A stretch of 64,000 nt of DNA from positions 1-64,000 of the forward strand of contig JADZFU010000006.1 in the NCBI GenBank assembly GCA_020854265.1. Reading direction: 5' to 3'. Each line of letters begins with the position of its first letter. Positions within the stretch are counted from its first letter, which is position 1. Below the pieces are notes generated by a model. It worked only from the letters and a program-made list of their open reading frames with translations. It was not told the DNA's origin and did no database searches. A program made the translations under genes and the position numbers. Shown here piece after piece: positions 1,304 through 59,318 of the stretch. Origin of the DNA: Candidatus Uhrbacteria bacterium. Lineage in GTDB: Bacteria; Patescibacteriota; Patescibacteriia; 2-12-FULL-60-25.

Positions 1304-2911
1304 TCAGTCGTCGGCGCGCGGCTCGCACCAGCGGCAGAGGTCGCAGGCGTTGAGGCGGGGGCCGTTCATGTGCTCCCACAGCACCGAGTGGTTCACGCCG
1401 CTGCAGTCCCAGTGGGCGACGGCGCGGCGGTCCTCGGTCAGCGTGACCGTGTTCTCGGTGAGGGAGACGGCGGAGCAGTCTCCGTGGGCCGAGGCCGGGA
1501 TGCAGGTGAAGCCCTCCAAGCCGCCCGTGCGGTCCGTGGAGGCCTCGCTGCCGCCTTCCTCGTCCGACTCGTCCGTCTCGGCGACGGTCTCGTCGGTCTC
1601 GGTGGTGCCGGTGTCGGAGGTGTCCGGGACCGTGGTGCGGTCCGCGGTGGCCGTGCGGTGCGCGCGGCCGTGCTCGTAGCTCTCGCCGATCTTGTAGACC
1701 AAGAGGGCGACCAGCATCGCGAGCACAGCGCCGACCATGTAGGTCAGCGGACGCTTGTACCACGGCGGCGCGAGCTTCTGCTGGAACATGGTCACCTCGC
1801 CGGGCTTCTTGGGGCCGGGCTGGGCGTCCTGCGGGTCGACCCGGAGCTGCTCGCGCTTCTTGGGCTCGGGCGTGCTCTGGGGCGGCGGGGTCGGCGGGTT
1901 CTGGGGGGTCTGCGGTGCGTCCATGGTCTCCTTCTCCTTCGCGGCTCGCTTCTCTTCGCGGGCACGCAGCTCGTTGTCGATGGCGGCCACCATGGCCTGC
2001 TGGACCTTGGCATCGCCCTTGCCATCGTAGGTCGCGTGTCCGATGTCCGTCTTGACCTTCGCGAGCACGTCGTCGCTCTTGTCCTTGACCCAGTGGTCGA
2101 AGGGAGCGATGACCGAGTGGTGCGCGAGCACCTGCCCGATCGACATGGTCACGGTCTGCTGACCCGTCGGCTTGGGAGCGTCGGGGATCGGCGTGAGCGT
2201 CGGGGCCGCGGTGTCGACCGGTCCGCTGTTCGGAGCCGGCGGGATGATCACCTGCGGCGGCACGCTCGGAGCCTTCTTGGGCTCGGCGAGCAATGCCGTG
2301 AGGCGGGCGATCTCCTTCTTGCCATCCTCGGTGTAGAGGGCGGCGCGGTGCAGCTCGAGCTCGATGCCCTTCTTGGCTTCGTCGTCGAGCTTGCCGCTCA
2401 AGATCCGAGCGATGTCCGAGAGCGGCTTGCTCTCGGCGTTCGGGACGCCGTTCGAGGCCGCGAGCTTGACGAGGGTCGTCTTGCGATAGACCTCGTCGTG
2501 CTTCCGCATGAGCTTGGCCGCGCGTTCCGCGGCGTGGCTGCGCTGGGCCTCGCCGAGGAGGGAGTGCTGGGCATCCTCCCGAAGGGAGTCGATCAGCGCT
2601 ACCGCTTCCTCGCGTCCGATGTCGAACGCATTCGCATCGATTTGCAAGAAGGCGTCGGCCTTCTCGAGACGGAACTCGTGCTCGACGATGAAGGCTCGCT
2701 TCTGCTCGGCCATCGGATCGGGCTGGGGGCCCGAGGCGAGGACCTCTTCGACCTCGGCCTTGCTCGGGCCGGGCTGTTCGCGGACGCTGGTCTCGCTCTG
2801 GCTTTCGCCAGCCGAGGTGCCGCTGCCGAAGGCAACGGTCGCCTGCTTCTTGGGGGCTTCGGCGGGCTTCTTGTCGCCACCGGTGCTCCTGAAACGATCC
2901 ATGCGGCTCAT
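1304..2911 (-). CDS. Single-pass membrane protein with long polar N-terminus and Cys-rich C-terminus
   Basis: 535 aa, GC-rich class B gene, no family recognised. The first 380 residues are highly charged and predicted helical with Pro-rich linkers. One transmembrane segment lies at about 390-410 (YMVGAVLAMLVALLVYKIG), preceded by WYKRP, which suggests a cytoplasmic N-terminus. After an acidic Thr/Glu linker, the last 70 residues contain seven Cys (FTCIP, GDCSA, WDCSG, CDLCRWC), possibly disulphide-bonded outside or metal-binding. The start is chosen by an SD (GGAGAG, 3 nt before ATG); the frame extends further upstream but lacks signals. It has its own strong promoter at 3003-3031 and a terminator at 1244-1277. 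It may connect cytoplasm and surface (inference). Confidence 0.75.
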   Translation of the reverse strand: MSRMDRFRSTGGDKKPAEAPKKQATVAFGSGTSAGESQSETSVREQPGPSKAEVEEVLASGPQPDPMAEQKRAFIVEHEFRLEKADAFLQIDANAFDIGREEAVALIDSLREDAQHSLLGEAQRSHAAERAAKLMRKHDEVYRKTTLVKLAASNGVPNAESKPLSDIARILSGKLDDEAKKGIELELHRAALYTEDGKKEIARLTALLAEPKKAPSVPPQVIIPPAPNSGPVDTAAPTLTPIPDAPKPTGQQTVTMSIGQVLAHHSVIAPFDHWVKDKSDDVLAKVKTDIGHATYDGKGDAKVQQAMVAAIDNELRAREEKRAAKEKETMDAPQTPQNPPTPPPQSTPEPKKREQLRVDPQDAQPGPKKPGEVTMFQQKLAPPWYKRPLTYMVGAVLAMLVALLVYKIGESYEHGRAHRTATADRTTVPDTSDTGTTETDETVAETDESDEEGGSEASTDRTGGLEGFTCIPASAHGDCSAVSLTENTVTLTEDRRAVAHWDCSGVNHSVLWEHMNGPRLNACDLCRWCEPRADD

Positions 2912-33191: not shown

Positions 33192-33974
33192 ATGATGGAA
33201 GATATAAAGCAGTCTTTGGTCGAGCTTGGATTGGCGCCAAAAGAAATCGAAGTATATCTTTCGATGCTCGAACTTGGCCCATCCAGCGTACAGGACATCG
33301 CCAAGAAAGCCGGAGTAAACCGTTCCACAACCTATGTCATGATCGAAGGCCTCAAAAAGCATGGCCTTGTTTCCACCTACGAAAAAGGCAAAAAAGTTTT
33401 TTTCGTAGCCGAAAATCCGGATCGCTTGGTACAAGTCGTGAACGAGCAGATCGGTCTCCTGTCAGCCAAACGCGAACGCGTATCCGCCGTCTTACCGCGC
33501 TTACTCGCCATCTTCAATGCCTCGGATGAAAAACCAAAAGTCCGCTTCTTCGAAGGCGATGAAACCATAGACATGATCCGGATGGATGTCGCAGCCTTCC
33601 GTTCCCCGGTCTGGAATTTCTTTGCGGTTGATGAAAATCTAAAAAAGGTCGCATCGATAAATGAAGAAAAACGCATCGAACTTTCTTCAAGAAACCCGGA
33701 GTCTCGTGTGTTGATGGCAGTAAAGCCAGGCGTAGTTCCGCAGTACATGGACAGATCGAATAAAGAGATACGCGCCATCAATTATGAGGATTTCCCATTC
33801 AGCGGAGAGATCACAATTGTCGCCGACCGGGTATATATCGTAAATGTCCAGGCCAGATCTATTGGCTTCATCGTCGAGAACAGGGAGATAGCCGATTTGT
33901 TCCGCGCCATTTATCAAGCAGCTTGGAATGGTGCAAAACCATGGACGCCTCCTGAAGGTTGGAAACGCCCGTGA
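33192..33974 (+). CDS. TrmB-type winged-helix regulator
   Basis: 260 aa. Winged helix at 1-75 (LVELGLAPKEIEVYLSMLEL, VQDIAKKAGVNRSTTYVMIEGL, KHGLVST), a coiled linker, and a C-terminal domain of about 150 residues (KVRFFEGDETIDMIRMDV, SGEITIVADRVYIVN) as in TrmB-like regulators, where it may bind a sugar. It sits after a glycosyltransferase gene. TAAGAT overlaps the upstream stop. ATG 33192 or 33195 are both possible starts. Confidence 0.82.
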   Translation: MMEDIKQSLVELGLAPKEIEVYLSMLELGPSSVQDIAKKAGVNRSTTYVMIEGLKKHGLVSTYEKGKKVFFVAENPDRLVQVVNEQIGLLSAKRERVSAVLPRLLAIFNASDEKPKVRFFEGDETIDMIRMDVAAFRSPVWNFFAVDENLKKVASINEEKRIELSSRNPESRVLMAVKPGVVPQYMDRSNKEIRAINYEDFPFSGEITIVADRVYIVNVQARSIGFIVENREIADLFRAIYQAAWNGAKPWTPPEGWKRP

Positions 33975-34764: not shown

Positions 34765-34793
34765 TTGACAAAATCGCAATTTTTTGCTATACT
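34765..34793 (+). promoter_or_regulatory. Class B promoter for the lipoprotein at 34857
   Basis: TTGACA, 17-nt spacer ending TTTTTTGC, TATACT. It is nearly identical in layout to the promoter at 6923. Confidence 0.9.
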
Positions 34794-34856: not shown

Positions 34857-36191
34857 ATGAACAGCAAGCTCGTGTTCGGTTTCGTCTGCCTCTGCCTCAC
34901 GGCCATCGGCTGCGGTTTCGACCGCTCGCCGCTCGGCCCCGACGACATGCCCGGCAGCGATGCCGGCATGCCTCCGGATAGTCCTCCGCCCGACAGCGGG
35001 ATGGAGGAGCGTCCGGATCCGTCGTCCACCGGGTGTATGCCCGGTTCGCTCCGCGACGAGGCATGCGCCAACCCCGCTCGTCCCTGCGAGCGCGGCGAGT
35101 ACTACGCCTGTCTCGAGAACGGAACCTGGACGTGCGTCGTGAGCGATCGCTCGCACTGCTCCGTCCCGGATCCCGAGCCCGCCTGCGACGACACCCAGCG
35201 CTTCTGGCGCGACGGCGACGGCGACGGCTACGGCAACCCAGACGACTACATCGTCCGCTCCGAGTGCGAGTCGCCGCCATCCGGCTACATGAACGCCATC
35301 AGCGGCCGCGAGGACTGCCAGGATCACGACCCATCGGCTCATCCCGGCGGCGTCGAGATCTGCGGCAATGACAGCGACGAGGACTGCAACGGCATCTACG
35401 ATGCTTGCCCCTCGACGCCGCCGGCCTGCGCATCCGATGCGCGCGTCGTGTCGCCCACGGCCTGCGTCATCCCCGCGACGGCAACGTCGTGCGTGATGAC
35501 CGGTCTGTACGTCTGCAATCCCGACGGACGGGTCGTCTGCCGCGGTGATATCCGTGTTTCCAGCACGGAGATCTGCGGTGACGGACTCGACCAGGACTGC
35601 AGCGGCTCCGACATCGCCTGCACGTCGACGTGCACGCCCCGCAGCGAAATCTGCGGCAATGGCGTGGACGAAGACTGCAACGGCGTGGCCGAAGCCTGCG
35701 TTCCGGCCTGCGTTCCGTCGGCCGAGATCTGCGACAATGGCCGCGACGAGGACTGCAACGGTTCGGATCTGGCTTGCCCGCCTCCTGGCGGTACGAGCAC
35801 GGTCCGTGTCGTGGTCGAGTTCCGCGTGGTCAACACGCCGACCGACTACGGCACCGTCTCGGCCCATCGCCTCCGAGGCGACGATCTCTCCGAGATCGTC
35901 TGCCGTAACACCGGCACAGTGGAGCCGCTGTCGCTCAGCGATGGCTGGCGCCGCTGTGTCATCGAGGTGACCGGCTCCTTGCTCTTCGTGGGCAAGTTCG
36001 AGTCGACGCGCATCTCGGCGGGGGACATCCTCCACACCACATCCGACTGGGGACGCTCCTCCTGCTACGGCCTCGATGGCGTACAGTGGCGCGTCTACCG
36101 CGAGGATACCGGCATCTCGCTCCTATCGAGCTCCGTGCCCGAGATGGTGCGCGGTTCCGCTGGCGGCTGCCGCCATCGTATCGCTCTCTAG
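34857..36191 (+). CDS. Lipoprotein with MopE-type metal-binding repeats (four)
   Basis: 444 aa, class B. Lipobox LTAIGC (Cys19), then a linker with SDAG and Pro. The middle has Asp-rich FWRDGDGDGYGNPDD (thrombospondin-3-like calcium loop) and four copies of the EICGN-x3-DEDCNG motif (EICGNDSDEDCNG, EICGDGLDQDCSG, EICGNGVDEDCNG, EICDNGRDEDCNG), as in MopE-type proteins that bind copper or calcium. The C-terminal 130 residues are beta-rich with two Cys pairs and are unrecognised. The start is set by AAGGAG 5 nt upstream; the earlier ATG at 34818 is in the leader. Repeats and DAG linkers are common in Myxococcota lipoproteins. Confidence 0.85.
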   Translation: MNSKLVFGFVCLCLTAIGCGFDRSPLGPDDMPGSDAGMPPDSPPPDSGMEERPDPSSTGCMPGSLRDEACANPARPCERGEYYACLENGTWTCVVSDRSHCSVPDPEPACDDTQRFWRDGDGDGYGNPDDYIVRSECESPPSGYMNAISGREDCQDHDPSAHPGGVEICGNDSDEDCNGIYDACPSTPPACASDARVVSPTACVIPATATSCVMTGLYVCNPDGRVVCRGDIRVSSTEICGDGLDQDCSGSDIACTSTCTPRSEICGNGVDEDCNGVAEACVPACVPSAEICDNGRDEDCNGSDLACPPPGGTSTVRVVVEFRVVNTPTDYGTVSAHRLRGDDLSEIVCRNTGTVEPLSLSDGWRRCVIEVTGSLLFVGKFESTRISAGDILHTTSDWGRSSCYGLDGVQWRVYREDTGISLLSSSVPEMVRGSAGGCRHRIAL

Positions 36192-36198
36192 TACCTTC

Positions 36199-36259
36199 GC
36201 CCGGCAGAAACGCCGGGCATAATCTGACTGAGACCCCTCCGAGTTACATCGGAGGGGTC
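36199..36259 (+). terminator. Two consecutive hairpins, the second a terminator
   Basis: GCCCGGC/GCCGGGC (36199-36218) is followed by GACCCCTCCGA/TCGGAGGGGTC (36232-36259) and TTGT. The second is the likely terminator. Confidence 0.75.
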
Positions 36260-36283
36260 TTGTCGTATACGGCCATTTTTGGC

Positions 36284-36312
36284 TTGACATTTTGTTATTT
36301 TCCTGATTAGGT
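36284..36312 (+). promoter_or_regulatory. Class B promoter for the lipoprotein at 36460
   Basis: TTGACA, 17-nt spacer, TTAGGT. A leader of about 140 nt follows with several GC-rich inverted repeats (for example CCGGG/CCCGG near 36366-36390); no start codon with SD is seen in it before 36460. Confidence 0.7.
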
Positions 36313-36459
36313 ACTCTCTTCCCTGCGTCTTGGGAGAACCAAGGCTCAGTGAAGCGGAATTTCTCCGGGAGAAGTACCCGGCTTCCGTCGGTTCTTTCAT
36401 ACACCAACCGGCTTGCCATGAGCCGTAATCAATCATGGTTGTTTCGAAAGGAGATCGGG

Positions 36460-38922
<2,463 letters not shown>

Positions 38923-38951
38923 CCTGATCCCTGACCGCTTCTCGCGGTCTC

Positions 38952-38981
38952 GAGCCCTCCGGCTTCCAAGTCGGAGGGCTC
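38952..38981 (+). terminator. Terminator of the large lipoprotein gene
   Basis: GAGCCCTCCG with CGGAGGGCTC, 10-nt loop, followed by TTTCTATT. Confidence 0.88.
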
Positions 38982-38991
38982 TTTCTATTCC

Positions 38992-39020
38992 TTGACGGTT
39001 TTATTTCATTATGATGAGGT
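38992..39020 (+). promoter_or_regulatory. Probable promoter for the lipoprotein at 39054
   Basis: TTGACG, 17-nt spacer, TGAGGT (weak -10). An alternative is TATGAT at 39010-39015 with a spacer too short to be used with this -35. Confidence 0.5.
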
Positions 39021-39053
39021 CGTGCCGGCTCGTTAGACACGAAAGGAGGCGCC

Positions 39054-39860
39054 ATGATGCGCGCCGGCACCCTGTTTCTCCTGTTCCTCAGTTTGAACGC
39101 CTGCGCGCCTCTGGTTGGCACCGAGTGCACCACGGGCGTCCGTCGCCCGTGTGCGGCAACGGCAGGACGCACCGGAACGCAGATCTGCGCTTCCGGCATC
39201 TGGCAAGCCTGCGTCGAGGCTCCGGTCACCGACAGCGGTCCGGTCTCGACCGATTCCGGCGGCTTGTCCGGCACGGATTCCGGCTCATCGGTTTCTGCCG
39301 ACGCTGGATCCTTCTACGTCTGGCCCGACGCCGGGAGTTCGGTGATGTCGGATGCCGGAACCTCGCTCGCCGACAGCGGCTGCATGGTTCCGGCTTCCTG
39401 TCCGGATCCGACCCCCGAAGCGGCCCAGCGCCGCCTCTGCGAGGATCTCCGTCATCCAGCCGAGACCGGCAGGCTCGTCATCCGCTACGACAATGCCTGT
39501 CTCGATCGGGTCTTCGACCACTGCGCATCCGGCTGGTCCTTGGTCGGATGGGATAGTTCGATCCCGTCCTGCGGTTCGCCGTCGGATCCGGGATCTGGCG
39601 TACTCGTCCTCGACCGTCTCCATCGCCGCGGCGGCTACTACCAGCTGTCGCTCATCTGCATCTCCGGCGCCACGCCACCCGGCTGGCCCGCCACTCTGCA
39701 CAACACGGCGCTCAATGCCGGATGTCTGACCTCGGCGCGTTTCGAGGATGGAATCGAGCTCGCCGACAACGAGGCGCGGTTCTGTCCGGGATACGCACAC
39801 GAAGGACGGCTCCTCGCGACGGTTCCGGCCCAGCCCGGCGCCATCGCCAACTGCCCCTGA
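39054..39860 (+). CDS. Lipoprotein sharing the novel C-terminal domain
   Basis: 268 aa, class B. Lipobox LSLNAC (Cys17). A short Cys-rich segment (GTECTTGVRRPCAATAGRTG) and a Ser/Asp/Ala/Gly linker (DSGSSVSADAG, SVMSDAGTSLADSG) precede a C-terminal domain of about 140 residues. This domain shares PE-x2-QR-x-LC, YD-x-ACL, C-ASGW, PSDPG, LDRLHR-x-GG-Y and ADxE-x-R-x-CP with the large lipoprotein upstream. Metal-binding repeats are absent. AAAGGAGG lies 4 nt before ATG 39054. The pair probably arose by duplication and repeat loss or gain. Confidence 0.8.
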   Translation: MMRAGTLFLLFLSLNACAPLVGTECTTGVRRPCAATAGRTGTQICASGIWQACVEAPVTDSGPVSTDSGGLSGTDSGSSVSADAGSFYVWPDAGSSVMSDAGTSLADSGCMVPASCPDPTPEAAQRRLCEDLRHPAETGRLVIRYDNACLDRVFDHCASGWSLVGWDSSIPSCGSPSDPGSGVLVLDRLHRRGGYYQLSLICISGATPPGWPATLHNTALNAGCLTSARFEDGIELADNEARFCPGYAHEGRLLATVPAQPGAIANCP

Positions 39861-39895: not shown

Positions 39896-40570
39896 CTATT
39901 TCTTGTTTTTATTTTTTCTACGTTTGAGCGTGGAGGAAACTTTCCGAAGCATCCCTGCAATAGCCGGCGATGCCGAGGCTCCTCTCCAGACTTTTCGTTT
40001 GAGCATGGCGTTTTTCATGCGGCGAATATCCTCGGTGCGCCCCATGTAGGCTATGACGCTCGTCGTGTCTTGGATGAAATAGCATGGCGCAATGGCTGCA
40101 AAATCCGACTTGTCCCATTCTGCATGATGCGTTTCATGGATATTCCCGAATACTTCTCCTTGGTCGCCGATATCTTTTGGAACGGAAACGAGCACGCCCC
40201 GTCCTTTGCGCAAAAGTTGTCGAAGCAGTTTTTGTCCTTCTTCTTTTTCAAAATGCTCCAGTACGTCGATAATCATGACCAAGTCGTAACGGTCTTTCAG
40301 TTTCGGGACGACTTCGAGGGCATTGCCGATGTAGATATGGTCGTAAATATAGTCATGCACCGGAGTGAGGTACTTTTTATAAACCTCGATACCATCGATG
40401 CGGCGGGTAAAGTTTTTATAGTCTTCTCGGCCATCCCAAAGCTCAAGGTATTCGCGTGCCAAGAAGCCATATTTGCCAAAACCGACACCGATATCAAGCA
40501 GGGAGGTTGGATTTACGGCAATGATGACGTCCAAAAGCTTCGGAATCTGGTAATGCTGTGATGTGGGCAT
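39896..40570 (-). CDS. Class I SAM-dependent methyltransferase
   Basis: 224 aa. Motif I LLDIGVGFGKYGFLA, post-I region IDGIEVY, motif IV YDLVMIIDVLEHF and LVSVPKD. The C-terminal tail is basic (STLKRRKNKNKK). It is divergent from the O-antigen-ligase gene, so a role in modifying the surface glycan is plausible (inference). It is class A in composition. Confidence 0.85.
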   Translation of the reverse strand: MPTSQHYQIPKLLDVIIAVNPTSLLDIGVGFGKYGFLAREYLELWDGREDYKNFTRRIDGIEVYKKYLTPVHDYIYDHIYIGNALEVVPKLKDRYDLVMIIDVLEHFEKEEGQKLLRQLLRKGRGVLVSVPKDIGDQGEVFGNIHETHHAEWDKSDFAAIAPCYFIQDTTSVIAYMGRTEDIRRMKNAMLKRKVWRGASASPAIAGMLRKVSSTLKRRKNKNKK

Positions 40571-40621: not shown

Positions 40622-42079
40622 ATGACGGCAGAGTCCCTTCCCATCAAACCGTGGCCGCGTATTGCATGGGGCGTCTCCATTCTGGCGGTTCTCGCTGCTT
40701 ATGCAACGGCTACGGGCACGCCTTTGGCAGGCGCATTTGTTGTAATTGGATTGGGAGCGGCAATTATCGCATGGCGTTTTCCGTACACGGTTTTTAATAT
40801 CTGGCTCTCGACCTGTCTTCTGCTCGGTATCCAAATTGCCGTTTCTACCGGACAAATCCGCATCGGTGAACGCGTCTTCATCGGATATCTCGAGCTCACG
40901 CTTGGAGAGTTCGTCGGCATCGCTTTGCTTATCGCATGGGCACTCCGCATCCTTGTCTTGTGGCGCGGCCGCCGCGACCGTAACTGGAAGCCGGACCTGC
41001 CTCTCATCCTCGGTTTTGGTTTGATGTTTGCTGCCCAGCTCGCATCGCTCGCATCCCCGGTTGAGCCGCCGGCAGGGGAGGTAATCAAACACGCGTTTCG
41101 ATATGTCGCATTTACATATCTCACCTGTATCGCTTTGGTTGTAAATTTTATCCGTTCCCGAAAACGTTTGCGCATGGCCTTGGTCGTGCTCACCGCATTC
41201 GGAATGATCTTTGCTCTCGATGGGCTGCGTTCCGTCATCCGTTTCGACGGCGGACTCTCGTTTAACCGTGCCGTGCCTTTGCCGATTCTTGAAACCATTC
41301 CGCTCGGAGGCAATCAGCATGCATTGGCTGAGGTAATGCTGATTGGCATATGTGCGGCGCTCGCCTTCGGAGCGCTTTCAAAATTCTCCGACCAAAAACT
41401 CCTCGCTTCATTCTCGGCTGCATGTATGGCGGTTATCGCCGTGCTGACCTTCTCGCGTACAGCGTGGATTGCCCTTGCAGTCATGGCCGGAATCCTCTCG
41501 CTCACGGTCTGGAAAGACTGGCTGCTCGCGCGCAAACAATGGTTGGCAATTGCGGCATTATTTTTCATTCCGTTCGCCGCGGCCATGGGCGTCTATACTC
41601 TTTCCAGCACGGCGCAAGGCTCTATCGATTCGCGCTCCATGCTCACGTCAATCGCATTCGATGCATTCGCCACCAGCCCCGTATTCGGAATCGGCGCCGG
41701 CACCTTCTACGACCGCGTCTCCCGTACCTACGCATTCGTCGTGGAGTTTGGTCCGGCCTTTGATGCGCATGGCTTTCTACAAAAAACCTTGGCAGAAACC
41801 GGGCTCATCGGTCTATTTGCATTACTGGTTACCGTGGCCATGATTGCACGCGAAATGTGGAAGGTATGGACTGGATTGTCCCGCGGACGCATTGAGCGGG
41901 AGGCGTATGCGTATCTCGCGGTCGGCGTAATCGGATCATTCATCTACCAATTATTCAGTACGAGCTACTGGACTCCGCGCTTATGGCTGCCGGTTGGTAT
42001 CATGCTGGCTGCCGGACGTATTTTCCTCGAAAAAGAATCCGAGCGCGATCCTGATTTTCTACGTAAGACCAATGGCTAA
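40622..42079 (+). CDS. O-antigen ligase-like (Wzy_C) membrane protein
   Basis: 485 aa with about eleven hydrophobic helices. The family pattern is visible in the large periplasmic-type loop: SPVFGIGAGTFYDR, with HGFLQKTLAETGLIGL following. Members ligate or polymerise sugar chains on a lipid carrier. TATCCT ends 9-10 nt before the ATG and there is no SD. It overlaps the next GT4 gene by 8 nt. Confidence 0.85.
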   Translation: MTAESLPIKPWPRIAWGVSILAVLAAYATATGTPLAGAFVVIGLGAAIIAWRFPYTVFNIWLSTCLLLGIQIAVSTGQIRIGERVFIGYLELTLGEFVGIALLIAWALRILVLWRGRRDRNWKPDLPLILGFGLMFAAQLASLASPVEPPAGEVIKHAFRYVAFTYLTCIALVVNFIRSRKRLRMALVVLTAFGMIFALDGLRSVIRFDGGLSFNRAVPLPILETIPLGGNQHALAEVMLIGICAALAFGALSKFSDQKLLASFSAACMAVIAVLTFSRTAWIALAVMAGILSLTVWKDWLLARKQWLAIAALFFIPFAAAMGVYTLSSTAQGSIDSRSMLTSIAFDAFATSPVFGIGAGTFYDRVSRTYAFVVEFGPAFDAHGFLQKTLAETGLIGLFALLVTVAMIAREMWKVWTGLSRGRIEREAYAYLAVGVIGSFIYQLFSTSYWTPRLWLPVGIMLAAGRIFLEKESERDPDFLRKTNG

Positions 42080-48809: not shown

Positions 48810-50405
48810 ATGAAGCAAGCACTTGCGATGATAGTCTTTGCAACTGCTTTGATTGGATTTTATGTAGCTGAAGCCACAGTTTCTCAAGATCAGATACAGT
48901 CAGTAATAAAGATTTACGATGTAATTTTCGATGGAGAGACAATAGTAAGCATTGGCCAAGGGTCTGGAACGATCATTGATCCAAGAGGTTATATTTTAAC
49001 AAATTACCATGTTGTTGATGATACGATTGAAAATGGCGGTACATTAATTTCTTGCCTTACCTTCAATTCACGCGATAATCCTGTCTGTGGAGCAGTTATC
49101 ACAGATGTTGTGCTTCATAATAAAAATATAGACTTGGCACTGTTAAAGATTGTACAGGTACGTGATGCAAATTCGAATTGGATATATTTTGAAGATTGGG
49201 TCCGTATGTACAATGTCAGATTCCCATACGTTCCTATTAACAAAAATCTTCAAACAAATGAAGGAATAGAGTTAGGATCGGAAATACAAATTCTTGGTTT
49301 TCCCGCTGCCGGAGGAGAAAGTATAACCTTTACAAAAGGTACGGTCAGTGGCTTTGAAACATTTGGTCTAGAAGTTGGGAGCTTTCCATTTTTGATAAAG
49401 ACTGATGCAAAAATAAACAGTGGTAATTCAGGAGGTGCTGCGTTTGATTCGAATAATAACTTTATAGGCGTACCCACAGCAGTTGCAGGAGGGCAAGGGA
49501 ATATCGGTTATATAATTTCAATGCCAATCGTTAACCTATTTTTGCAAGACATACCGGACGTAGGTGTAAATTCTGGTTCTTTAACTTGTCCCGACATGGT
49601 AAATGGTTATAGATCAGATGATGGTAAATGTTATTGTAATACTGGTTATATATTCAATGATGAACAGGGTCGATGTTTATTGGCGCCAGGTAGTATTACT
49701 ACAGAGGCTCCTGTTCAATGTACAAACGGGATAGTTGATTCCAAAGGCTTCTGTCATTGTAATGTGGGTTATTCATGGTCAAGTGATATAAAAGATTGTG
49801 TGAAGCTTGTTACACCACCAGTAACGCTCGTTGAGTGTCCTGAAGATAAAAAGCTTTACTCAGGAGTGTGTGTGAGCATGGACGAGTATTGCTCATATAC
49901 TTCTGGTAGCGGCACTACTTGGAATAAGACGCTTCAAAACTGTGAACGAATCGAACAGTCCATCGAGAACAGTAAAACATTGTCTTGCAAGGCGATACCA
50001 TCAGAAACTGAAATAAGAGCGCCTAAAAATCTTGAAGGATACATCTTGCTGCAAGTGGAGTCGCGCGGTGAGGCTTGGTACATCCATCCTAAATACGGTC
50101 AGCGATTCTATCTGAAAGACGGTTCAGAAGCATATCAGATGATGAGAACGTTCGGAGTTGGGATATCAGAAAAAGATTTTGTACTAGCTCTAGACGGAAA
50201 CAAACGAATTTTAAGTTTGTTACGAGGGATGATTGTACTTAGAGTGCAATCACGAGGTGAAGCTTACTACGTTCACCCAAAAGATCTGACTCTCCATTAT
50301 CTAGCAAACGGTGAGGAAGCTTATAAATTGATGCGTTTATACAGTTTAGGAATTTCGAATCAAAATTTAGAAAAGATACCAAAATCAGATTTCATTTGTA
50401 GATAA
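48810..50405 (+). CDS. AT-rich trypsin-like serine protease with EGF-like and C-terminal repeats
   Basis: 531 aa. A signal peptide is followed by an S1C-like protease domain: catalytic His67 (TNYHVV), Asp108 (IDLALLK) and Ser207 (GNSGGAAF). Next come two Cys-rich EGF-like segments (CYCNTGYIFNDEQGRC, CHCNVGYSWSSDIKDC), and two C-terminal repeats at about 410-452 and 472-515 (ESRGEAWYIHPKYGQRFYL and QSRGEAYYVHPKDLTLHYL, both ending GIS) of a type common in CPR surface proteins. The gene is far more AT-rich than its neighbours, suggesting recent transfer. TATAAT lies 13 nt before the ATG. Confidence 0.87.
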   Translation: MKQALAMIVFATALIGFYVAEATVSQDQIQSVIKIYDVIFDGETIVSIGQGSGTIIDPRGYILTNYHVVDDTIENGGTLISCLTFNSRDNPVCGAVITDVVLHNKNIDLALLKIVQVRDANSNWIYFEDWVRMYNVRFPYVPINKNLQTNEGIELGSEIQILGFPAAGGESITFTKGTVSGFETFGLEVGSFPFLIKTDAKINSGNSGGAAFDSNNNFIGVPTAVAGGQGNIGYIISMPIVNLFLQDIPDVGVNSGSLTCPDMVNGYRSDDGKCYCNTGYIFNDEQGRCLLAPGSITTEAPVQCTNGIVDSKGFCHCNVGYSWSSDIKDCVKLVTPPVTLVECPEDKKLYSGVCVSMDEYCSYTSGSGTTWNKTLQNCERIEQSIENSKTLSCKAIPSETEIRAPKNLEGYILLQVESRGEAWYIHPKYGQRFYLKDGSEAYQMMRTFGVGISEKDFVLALDGNKRILSLLRGMIVLRVQSRGEAYYVHPKDLTLHYLANGEEAYKLMRLYSLGISNQNLEKIPKSDFICR

Positions 50406-58832: not shown

Positions 58833-59318
58833 ATGACTGCGTTCGACATCCGCCACCCGCAAACCATCAAGATGCTCGAGCTCTTCGAGAAGATGGACTT
58901 GTTCACCAAGATCGTGCTCGATTCCGGTCTGCCGGTCCGTCACGACACCGACATCAGCGATCCGGTCATCACCTCGGTCAGCTCCGAGGACGATCATCCG
59001 GTGGTGCTCGAGTGGAGCTACAATTCGGACTGCATTTCGATGAACCTCTACTTCAACAGCGAGCAGGACGCGAGCCTCATCGGGGGCATCGTCTACCTGG
59101 CATGGGACGTGGCGAACCAGTGGCATCTCTACTGGGAAACCTCGGACGATGGCTGCGAGATCGGTTCCGAGGCCAAGTCCTTCGTCGCCGAGCTCGGCAT
59201 CCCCGACGAGCGCATCATCCGAAAGATCGCTCCGACCGAGGTCGAGGGTTACGCCCGGCGGTACATCGCCATGTACAAGCGGATGATGAGCCGGCACGTC
59301 GAGAAGCCCGTGCGCTGA
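58833..59318 (+). CDS. Class B protein, paralogue of the 59450 product
   Basis: 161 aa, acidic, cytosolic, unrecognised. AAGGAGG lies 4 nt before ATG. It aligns with the 59450 product over about 120 residues: VLEWSYNSD against RLEWHHDPG, HLYWETSDD against FLYWDLADA, EAKSFVAELGI against EARAFMKELAI and RYIAMYKRMM against QFINRYKSIL. The conserved Trp, Glu and Tyr positions suggest a binding fold, with no catalytic signature visible. Last gene of its unit, followed by a strong terminator. Confidence 0.72.
   Translation: MTAFDIRHPQTIKMLELFEKMDLFTKIVLDSGLPVRHDTDISDPVITSVSSEDDHPVVLEWSYNSDCISMNLYFNSEQDASLIGGIVYLAWDVANQWHLYWETSDDGCEIGSEAKSFVAELGIPDERIIRKIAPTEVEGYARRYIAMYKRMMSRHVEKPVR

What the first reader, a model, noticed from the sequence alone, without database searches (positions are those of the whole stretch)
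34857..39860. Trio of MopE-repeat and DAG-linker lipoproteins in a small genome
Seen: three consecutive single-gene units encode lipoproteins; two carry 4 and 8 CGNGxDEDCNG-type motifs, and all three have Asp-Ala-Gly type linkers. Known: such repeats bind copper or calcium in MopE-like proteins and are abundant in Myxococcota. Inference: transfer from a Myxococcota-like donor or host, giving a metal-binding surface layer.
Basis: partly seen in the sequence, partly recalled or inferred. Interest (0 to 1): 0.68.

Follow-up and report, generated by a model that had tools for sequence, protein, structure and literature searches.

The report
Conserved locus for stalked surface lipoproteins
A tiny-genome bacterium keeps, at one fixed place beside its sugar-coat genes, genes for cysteine-rich lipid-anchored surface proteins with repeated metal-binding loops like those of myxobacteria; the place is old and shared by the whole bacterial family, so the three genes are not a recent import but probably a family-specific set of stalk-and-tip surface proteins.

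Summary
Three lipobox proteins (444, 820 and 268 aa) carry 4, 8 and 0 MopE-type (PF11617) motifs. DAG linkers are clear in P2 and P3 and weak in P1. The repeat unit does resemble Myxococcota most closely outside its own group.

A recent transfer does not hold. P2 has syntenic orthologues, with four repeat units and the same C-terminal domain, in two sister species and in another genus. The gap between the TrmB-like gene and the Wzy_C (O-antigen-ligase-family) gene holds such Cys-rich secreted proteins in 14 of 15 family genomes where it could be read (10 genera). Ten of these have MopE motifs; others use TSP3 repeats or Gly/Ser/Asp-rich linkers.

The P2/P3 C-terminal domain was found only in five to six genera of this family. 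It was absent from the two Myxococcota genomes with the closest units, and it has no Pfam or PDB relative. GC3 is very high, but equally so in the repeats and in the family-specific domain, and also in unrelated orphan genes, so it is not a donor fingerprint.

Best reading: lipid-anchored, disulfide-rich, probably Ca2+-stabilised stalks presenting lineage-specific beta-domain tips, likely for contact or recognition. Surface exposure, metal and function are inferred.

The parts
34857..36191 (+). P1: 444-aa Cys-rich (35 Cys) predicted lipoprotein; 4 PF11617 motifs (one complete, with a DGDGDG loop) and a private C-terminal domain
   Evidence: C-terminal part has no orthologue in G001/G002, only weak matches in three family genomes
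36460..38922 (+). P2: 820-aa predicted lipoprotein (69 Cys, no Lys, pI 4.05); four ~120-aa units with eight DxDx[DNS]G/MopE loops, DAG linker, C-terminal domain
   Evidence: syntenic orthologues in G001, G002, G011
36904..38361 (+). P2 repeat region: four units starting at residues 149, 271, 397 and 517; loops at 198, 258, 321, 384, 445, 504, 566, 626
38485..38919 (+). P2 C-terminal domain, family-specific; predicted mostly beta (pLDDT 76.6, pTM 0.73)
39054..39860 (+). P3: 268-aa predicted lipoprotein, D(A/S)G-rich linker, no MopE motif; C-terminal domain paralogous to that of P2 (44% identity)
39414..39857 (+). P3 copy of the C-terminal domain
34765..34793 (+). sigma-70-like promoter TTGACA-17-TATACT (TG before second hexamer) upstream of P1
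   Evidence: 11 of 12 matches; consensus match only
38952..38981 (+). intrinsic-terminator-like hairpin between P2 and P3
39865..39893 (+). intrinsic-terminator-like hairpin after P3
33192..33974 (+). upstream anchor of the conserved locus: TrmB-like HTH regulator
   Evidence: PF01978 E 7e-14; matches in 27 of 30 family genomes
40622..42079 (+). downstream anchor: Wzy_C (O-antigen-ligase-family) membrane protein, followed by GT4 glycosyltransferases
   Evidence: PF04932 E 1.2e-15; 24 of 30 family genomes
39896..40570 (-). small gene between P3 and the Wzy_C gene, probably a methyltransferase-like protein (weak Rsm22 match below cut-off)

Best explanation
The three genes are this species' contents of an old, family-conserved chromosomal slot between a TrmB-like regulator and a surface-polysaccharide cluster. 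The slot encodes lipid-anchored stalk-and-tip surface proteins. Each protein is exported by Sec and lipidated at a lipobox Cys. A disulfide-rich stalk of MopE-type DxDx[DN]G loops, probably Ca2+-stabilised, or a flexible DAG/GS linker lifts a small lineage-specific C-terminal beta-domain away from the membrane. The tip probably binds a partner: host or neighbour cell, polymer or surface. Shown by sequence: genes, lipoboxes, motifs, synteny, interchangeable stalk types, and the family-specific tip domain. Inferred: surface exposure, Ca2+ binding, and adhesive or recognition function. The repeat module shares ancestry with that of Myxococcota and was exchanged between phyla, or multiplied in both, before the split of at least two genera of this family.
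For: Lipoboxes and motif counts far above shuffles. P2 orthologues at the same place in G001, G002 (same genus) and G011 (other genus), 41-48% identical to P2 end to end. Units pair by position across species: u1 99, u3 98, u2 96 SH-aLRT; holding the 16 P2 units together is not rejected, p-AU 0.956. The slot holds Cys-rich secreted proteins, mostly GC3-elevated, in 14 of 15 family genomes where it could be read. Stalk type varies at the same site: MopE, TSP_3 at E 2.6e-55, Gly/Ser/Asp-rich. TSP3 repeats are established Ca2+ binders (general knowledge), which favours Ca2+. The tip domain is restricted to the family, occurs in several copies per genome (G004 six), and once is displayed by a TM anchor without repeats. 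CaCl2 stabilises MopE* (PMC3423442).
Against: No tip ligand, no significant structural match (Foldseek best E 0.14 in PDB; 0.045 in BFVD) and no usable full-length model (pLDDT 36). Surface location and metal are untested. P1's lipobox is atypical. The slot is empty in G018 and not found intact in genus g7, so it is not essential. Orthology of the anchor genes in the more distant genera rests on 33-40% identity plus neighbouring genes.
Confidence: 0.55

Rival explanations
1. Recent horizontal acquisition of the trio from a Myxococcota-like donor or host.
For: Repeat units closest to Myxococcota outside the family; GC3 0.77-0.90 against 0.55-0.59; intergenic GC at background; codon choice unlike ribosomal/EF genes, e.g. 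GAG 1.0 and CCC 0.42 in P2.
Against: Syntenic P2 orthologues in two genera; family-specific tip domain absent from the two Myxococcota genomes with the nearest units; GC3 equal in N-terminus, repeats and tip (0.92/0.89/0.90; same flat pattern in three orthologues); the same GC3 excess in family slot genes without MopE and in unrelated genes such as 1307-2911.
Confidence: 0.08
2. Recurrent import: the slot is an old landing site whose contents are repeatedly replaced or converted by high-GC modules from Myxococcota-like neighbours, so both the fixed position and the constantly high GC3 are true.
For: Slot GC3 lies in a narrow band (0.58-0.86, mostly 0.71-0.86) while host GC3 spans 0.33-0.81 (slope 0.33); contents differ between genera; other Patescibacteria units are scattered among Myxococcota ones in the tree.
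Against: P2 itself is inherited position by position in its relatives; the family-only tip domain has the same GC3 as the repeats; slot and host GC3 correlate (rho 0.60, p 0.024).
Confidence: 0.2
3. A structural metal-binding coat (S-layer-like or passive cation/metal buffer) without a specific ligand.
For: Very acidic, Cys-rich proteins with many metal-type loops; several such loci per genome.
Against: A lineage-specific C-terminal domain also occurs in proteins with no metal motif (P3; G011:C53; G004's 157-aa lipoprotein), so the tip rather than the metal repeat looks like the selected part.
Confidence: 0.12
4. Copper capture as in Methylococcus MopE.
For: PF11617 is named after MopE; an Asp-rich stretch of MopE* is needed for weak Cu(II) binding (PMC3423442).
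Against: MopE's strong Cu(I) site is His132/His203/kynurenine-130, outside the motif; P2 has 4 His in 820 residues; no copper genes were seen in the neighbourhood.
Confidence: 0.05

Closest known systems
Pfam PF11617 Cu-binding_MopE repeat proteins (Methylococcus MopE; many Myxococcota proteins)
   Same: D[DNE][DN]C[DNS]G loops, 4 in P1 and 8 in P2; the ~120-aa unit is shared with Myxococcota
   Different: P2 has mostly half-motifs; lipid-anchored; carries a C-terminal domain found only in this family; MopE's His/kynurenine copper site is outside the motif
Thrombospondin type 3 (TSP_3, PF02412) calcium-binding stalks
   Same: DxDxDG loops; a TSP_3 protein occupies the same slot in G041
   Different: P1-P3 themselves have no TSP_3 match
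Myxococcota lipoproteins with DAG/GS linkers
   Same: lipobox, low-complexity Asp-Ala-Gly linker, Cys repeats (linker likeness from general knowledge)
   Different: tip domain absent from the two best-matching Myxococcota genomes; conserved locus inside a small-genome family

Membership tests
PF11617 Cu-binding_MopE | profile match above curated cut-off | tested here: met
   P1 60.1 bits, P2 90.8 bits, cut-off 27; P3 no match
PF11617 Cu-binding_MopE | complete 30-position motif | tested here: met
   P1 positions 1-29 at residues 153-182; P2 only positions ~13-30
Methylococcus MopE-type copper protein | His132/His203/kynurenine-130 Cu(I) site | tested here: inconclusive
   site described in PMC3423442; P2 has 4 His; no useful PDB sequence match to P1 or P2, so the residues could not be aligned
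Calcium-binding DxDxDG stalk | repeated D-x-[DN]-x-[DNS]-G loops | tested here: met
   5 in P1 and 8 in P2, shuffle means 0.13 and 0.25
Calcium-binding DxDxDG stalk | measured metal binding | not testable with these tools
   needs recombinant protein
TSP_3 | PF02412 match | tested here: not met
   no match in P1-P3 at E<=1
Bacterial lipoprotein | signal peptide with lipobox Cys | tested here: met
   VSAC (P2), LNAC (P3); AIGC in P1 is atypical; pattern match only, no signal-peptide predictor was available
Recent transfer from Myxococcota | absence from close relatives at the same locus | tested here: not met
   P2 orthologues in G001, G002, G011

The most novel reading that the evidence does not exclude
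A family of small-genome, probably episymbiotic, bacteria keeps a dedicated, position-fixed locus whose only job is to host fast-changing stalk-and-tip recognition proteins. Stalks (MopE, TSP3, Gly/Asp-rich) and tips are swapped by lineage, perhaps matched to the host cell and partly built from modules taken from myxobacterial hosts or neighbours.
Probability: 0.25. Interest if true: 0.8.

Novelty: new variant of a known kind. Interest (0 to 1): 0.52.

Why it matters
How ultrasmall bacteria recognise and hold their hosts is largely unknown. [quoted passage not shown] A fixed locus that predicts, genome by genome, a lineage-specific surface tip gives a short list of candidate recognition proteins. 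It also shows that high GC3 and myxobacteria-like repeats should not by themselves be read as recent transfer in these genomes.

Tried and rejected
Recent transfer: rejected for P2 by synteny and the family-specific tip. GC3 as a donor fingerprint: rejected because it is equal in shared and private domains and is also seen in unrelated genes. High-expression codon optimisation: rejected because P2 uses GAG and CCC against ribosomal/EF usage. Regional mutation bias: rejected because intergenic GC is at background. Full-length AlphaFold model of P2: unusable, pLDDT 36. Tip-domain fold searches: no significant match in PDB or BFVD, only weak Ig/FN3-like hits. PDB sequence searches gave nothing useful. 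Paper searches found nothing on MopE repeats in Patescibacteria. In one search three trimmed reading frames were wrong; corrected. The repeat tree has only 119 columns and 55 of 100 branches are open, so donor direction was not claimed.

Full report
OBSERVATION. Three + strand genes lie between a TrmB-like regulator (33192-33974) and a Wzy_C membrane protein (40622-42079): P1 34857-36191, P2 36460-38922, P3 39054-39860. Pfam gives only PF11617 for P1 (4 stretches, E 2.4e-16) and P2 (8 stretches, E 5.8e-26), and nothing for P3. Loop counts are far above shuffled sequences. Lipobox-like sites end in a Cys early in each protein, atypical in P1. The Asp-Ala/Ser-Gly linker is strong in P3, present in P2, and not above chance in P1. 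One promoter-like site precedes P1; terminators follow P2 and P3.

NOT A RECENT IMPORT. The window lies in a 1.0 Mb genome. P2 orthologues sit at the same place in two congeners (G001, G002) and in another genus (G011), each with four ~120-aa repeat units, a DAG-type linker and the same C-terminal domain; identity to P2 is 41-48% along the whole length. In a tree of 106 repeat units, units of G001 and G002 pair by position (SH-aLRT 99, 96, 98 and 88 for u1-u4), with G011 u1 joining u1. Holding the 16 P2 units as one clade is not rejected (p-AU 0.956). The tree is poorly resolved and gives no donor direction.

THE SLOT. Anchors were mapped in 30 family genomes and the stretches fetched. In 15 genomes the space downstream of the TrmB-like gene could be read up to the Wzy_C gene, or in G001, in which that gene was not found, up to the next glycosyltransferase gene. 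Fourteen, from 10 genera, hold one to three Cys-rich predicted secreted proteins; G018 has an empty 0.7-kb gap. In genus g7 the anchors lie on separate contigs and no such protein was seen. Ten of the 14 have MopE motifs in the slot. G041 has a TSP_3 stalk (E 2.6e-55) beside a MopE one. G014, G003, G022 and G006 have Gly/Ser/Asp-rich linkers. In some genomes the slot gene is on the opposite strand. P1 and P3 have no counterpart in the slots of the congeners. P3's C-terminal domain is a paralogue of P2's (44%), so it probably arose by duplication and rearrangement (inference).

THE TIP DOMAIN. The P2/P3 C-terminal domain (profile A1) was found in 4 of 144 genomes searched, the window's own included. 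A divergent profile (A4, from G004 and another locus of this genome) matches it (hhalign E 2e-9) and finds it in five family genera and no other genome among 192 of the class. It recovers the P2 copy independently at E 2e-8. The domain was absent from the two Myxococcota genomes that hold the nearest repeat units. The predicted fold is mostly beta (pLDDT 76.6, pTM 0.73), with no significant match in PDB or BFVD. One copy in G011 is displayed on a predicted transmembrane anchor without any repeat.

KINSHIP OF THE REPEAT. The named genome scan returned almost only Myxococcota/'Deltaproteobacteria' among the 80 best loci, with two Patescibacteria. The best units outside the family are 122.7 and 117.3 bits in Myxococcota against 85.6 in other Patescibacteria. 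PF11617 occurs in 24 of 38 close relatives but in 37 of 380 genomes across the phylum.

GC3. P1-P3 have GC3 of 0.84, 0.90 and 0.77 against about 0.55-0.59, while intergenic DNA is at background. Across 14 family slots the excess is positive in 13 (Wilcoxon p 0.00024) and slot GC3 correlates with host GC3 (rho 0.60, p 0.024). Among MopE genes of the wider group 25 of 27 were above the median of their neighbours. Within P2 and its orthologues GC3 is the same in N-terminus, repeats and family-specific tip. Unrelated genes such as 1307-2911 (GC3 0.92), which had no relative in the 28 genomes searched apart from its own, share it. It is therefore not a signature of imported MopE repeats. Its cause remains unexplained.

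FUNCTION. Best reading: lipid-anchored stalk-and-tip surface proteins with metal-, most likely Ca2+-, stabilised stalks. Reasons: DxDx[DN]G loops, interchangeability with TSP3 repeats at the same site, and stabilisation of MopE* by CaCl2 (PMC3423442). The copper site of MopE lies elsewhere in that protein. Binding by the tip is inference. The neighbourhood (Wzy_C, GT4 glycosyltransferases) suggests a cell-surface polysaccharide context.

Noticed in passing
window 1307-2911 (-): 535-aa gene with GC3 0.92, a likely TM segment near a Cys-containing tail, no MopE motif, and no relative found in related genomes.
   Followed up: partly
window 48810-50405 (+): Trypsin/HtrA-like protease, apparently secreted, with the opposite bias (GC 0.386, GC3 0.30) in a 53-54% GC genome.
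   Followed up: partly
window 58833-59315 (+): 161-aa ORF with GC3 0.89.
   Followed up: no
L009:5656-6855 (G000 contig C3, ~161 kb): Second MopE lipoprotein locus upstream of what looks like the ribosome recycling factor gene, syntenic in G002 (L032); next to a high-GC3 secreted protein at L009:3904-5433.
   Followed up: partly
L010:5801-6694 (G000 contig C3, ~27 kb): Third MopE lipoprotein, upstream of a RecA-like gene, whose end is a divergent copy of the P2 tip domain.
   Followed up: partly
L041/L131 (G011:C53:16309-16722): Tip domain displayed on an N-terminal transmembrane anchor without repeats or lipobox.
   Followed up: partly
L140 (G037:C2:304000-323000): Same-class genome with a 1798-aa MopE protein (20 motifs) in a 69% GC stretch, GC3 0.93.
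   Followed up: no
L146 (G085:C22): Three neighbouring MopE lipoproteins with GC3 0.85-0.93 beside genes of GC3 0.55: a second, independent trio.
   Followed up: no
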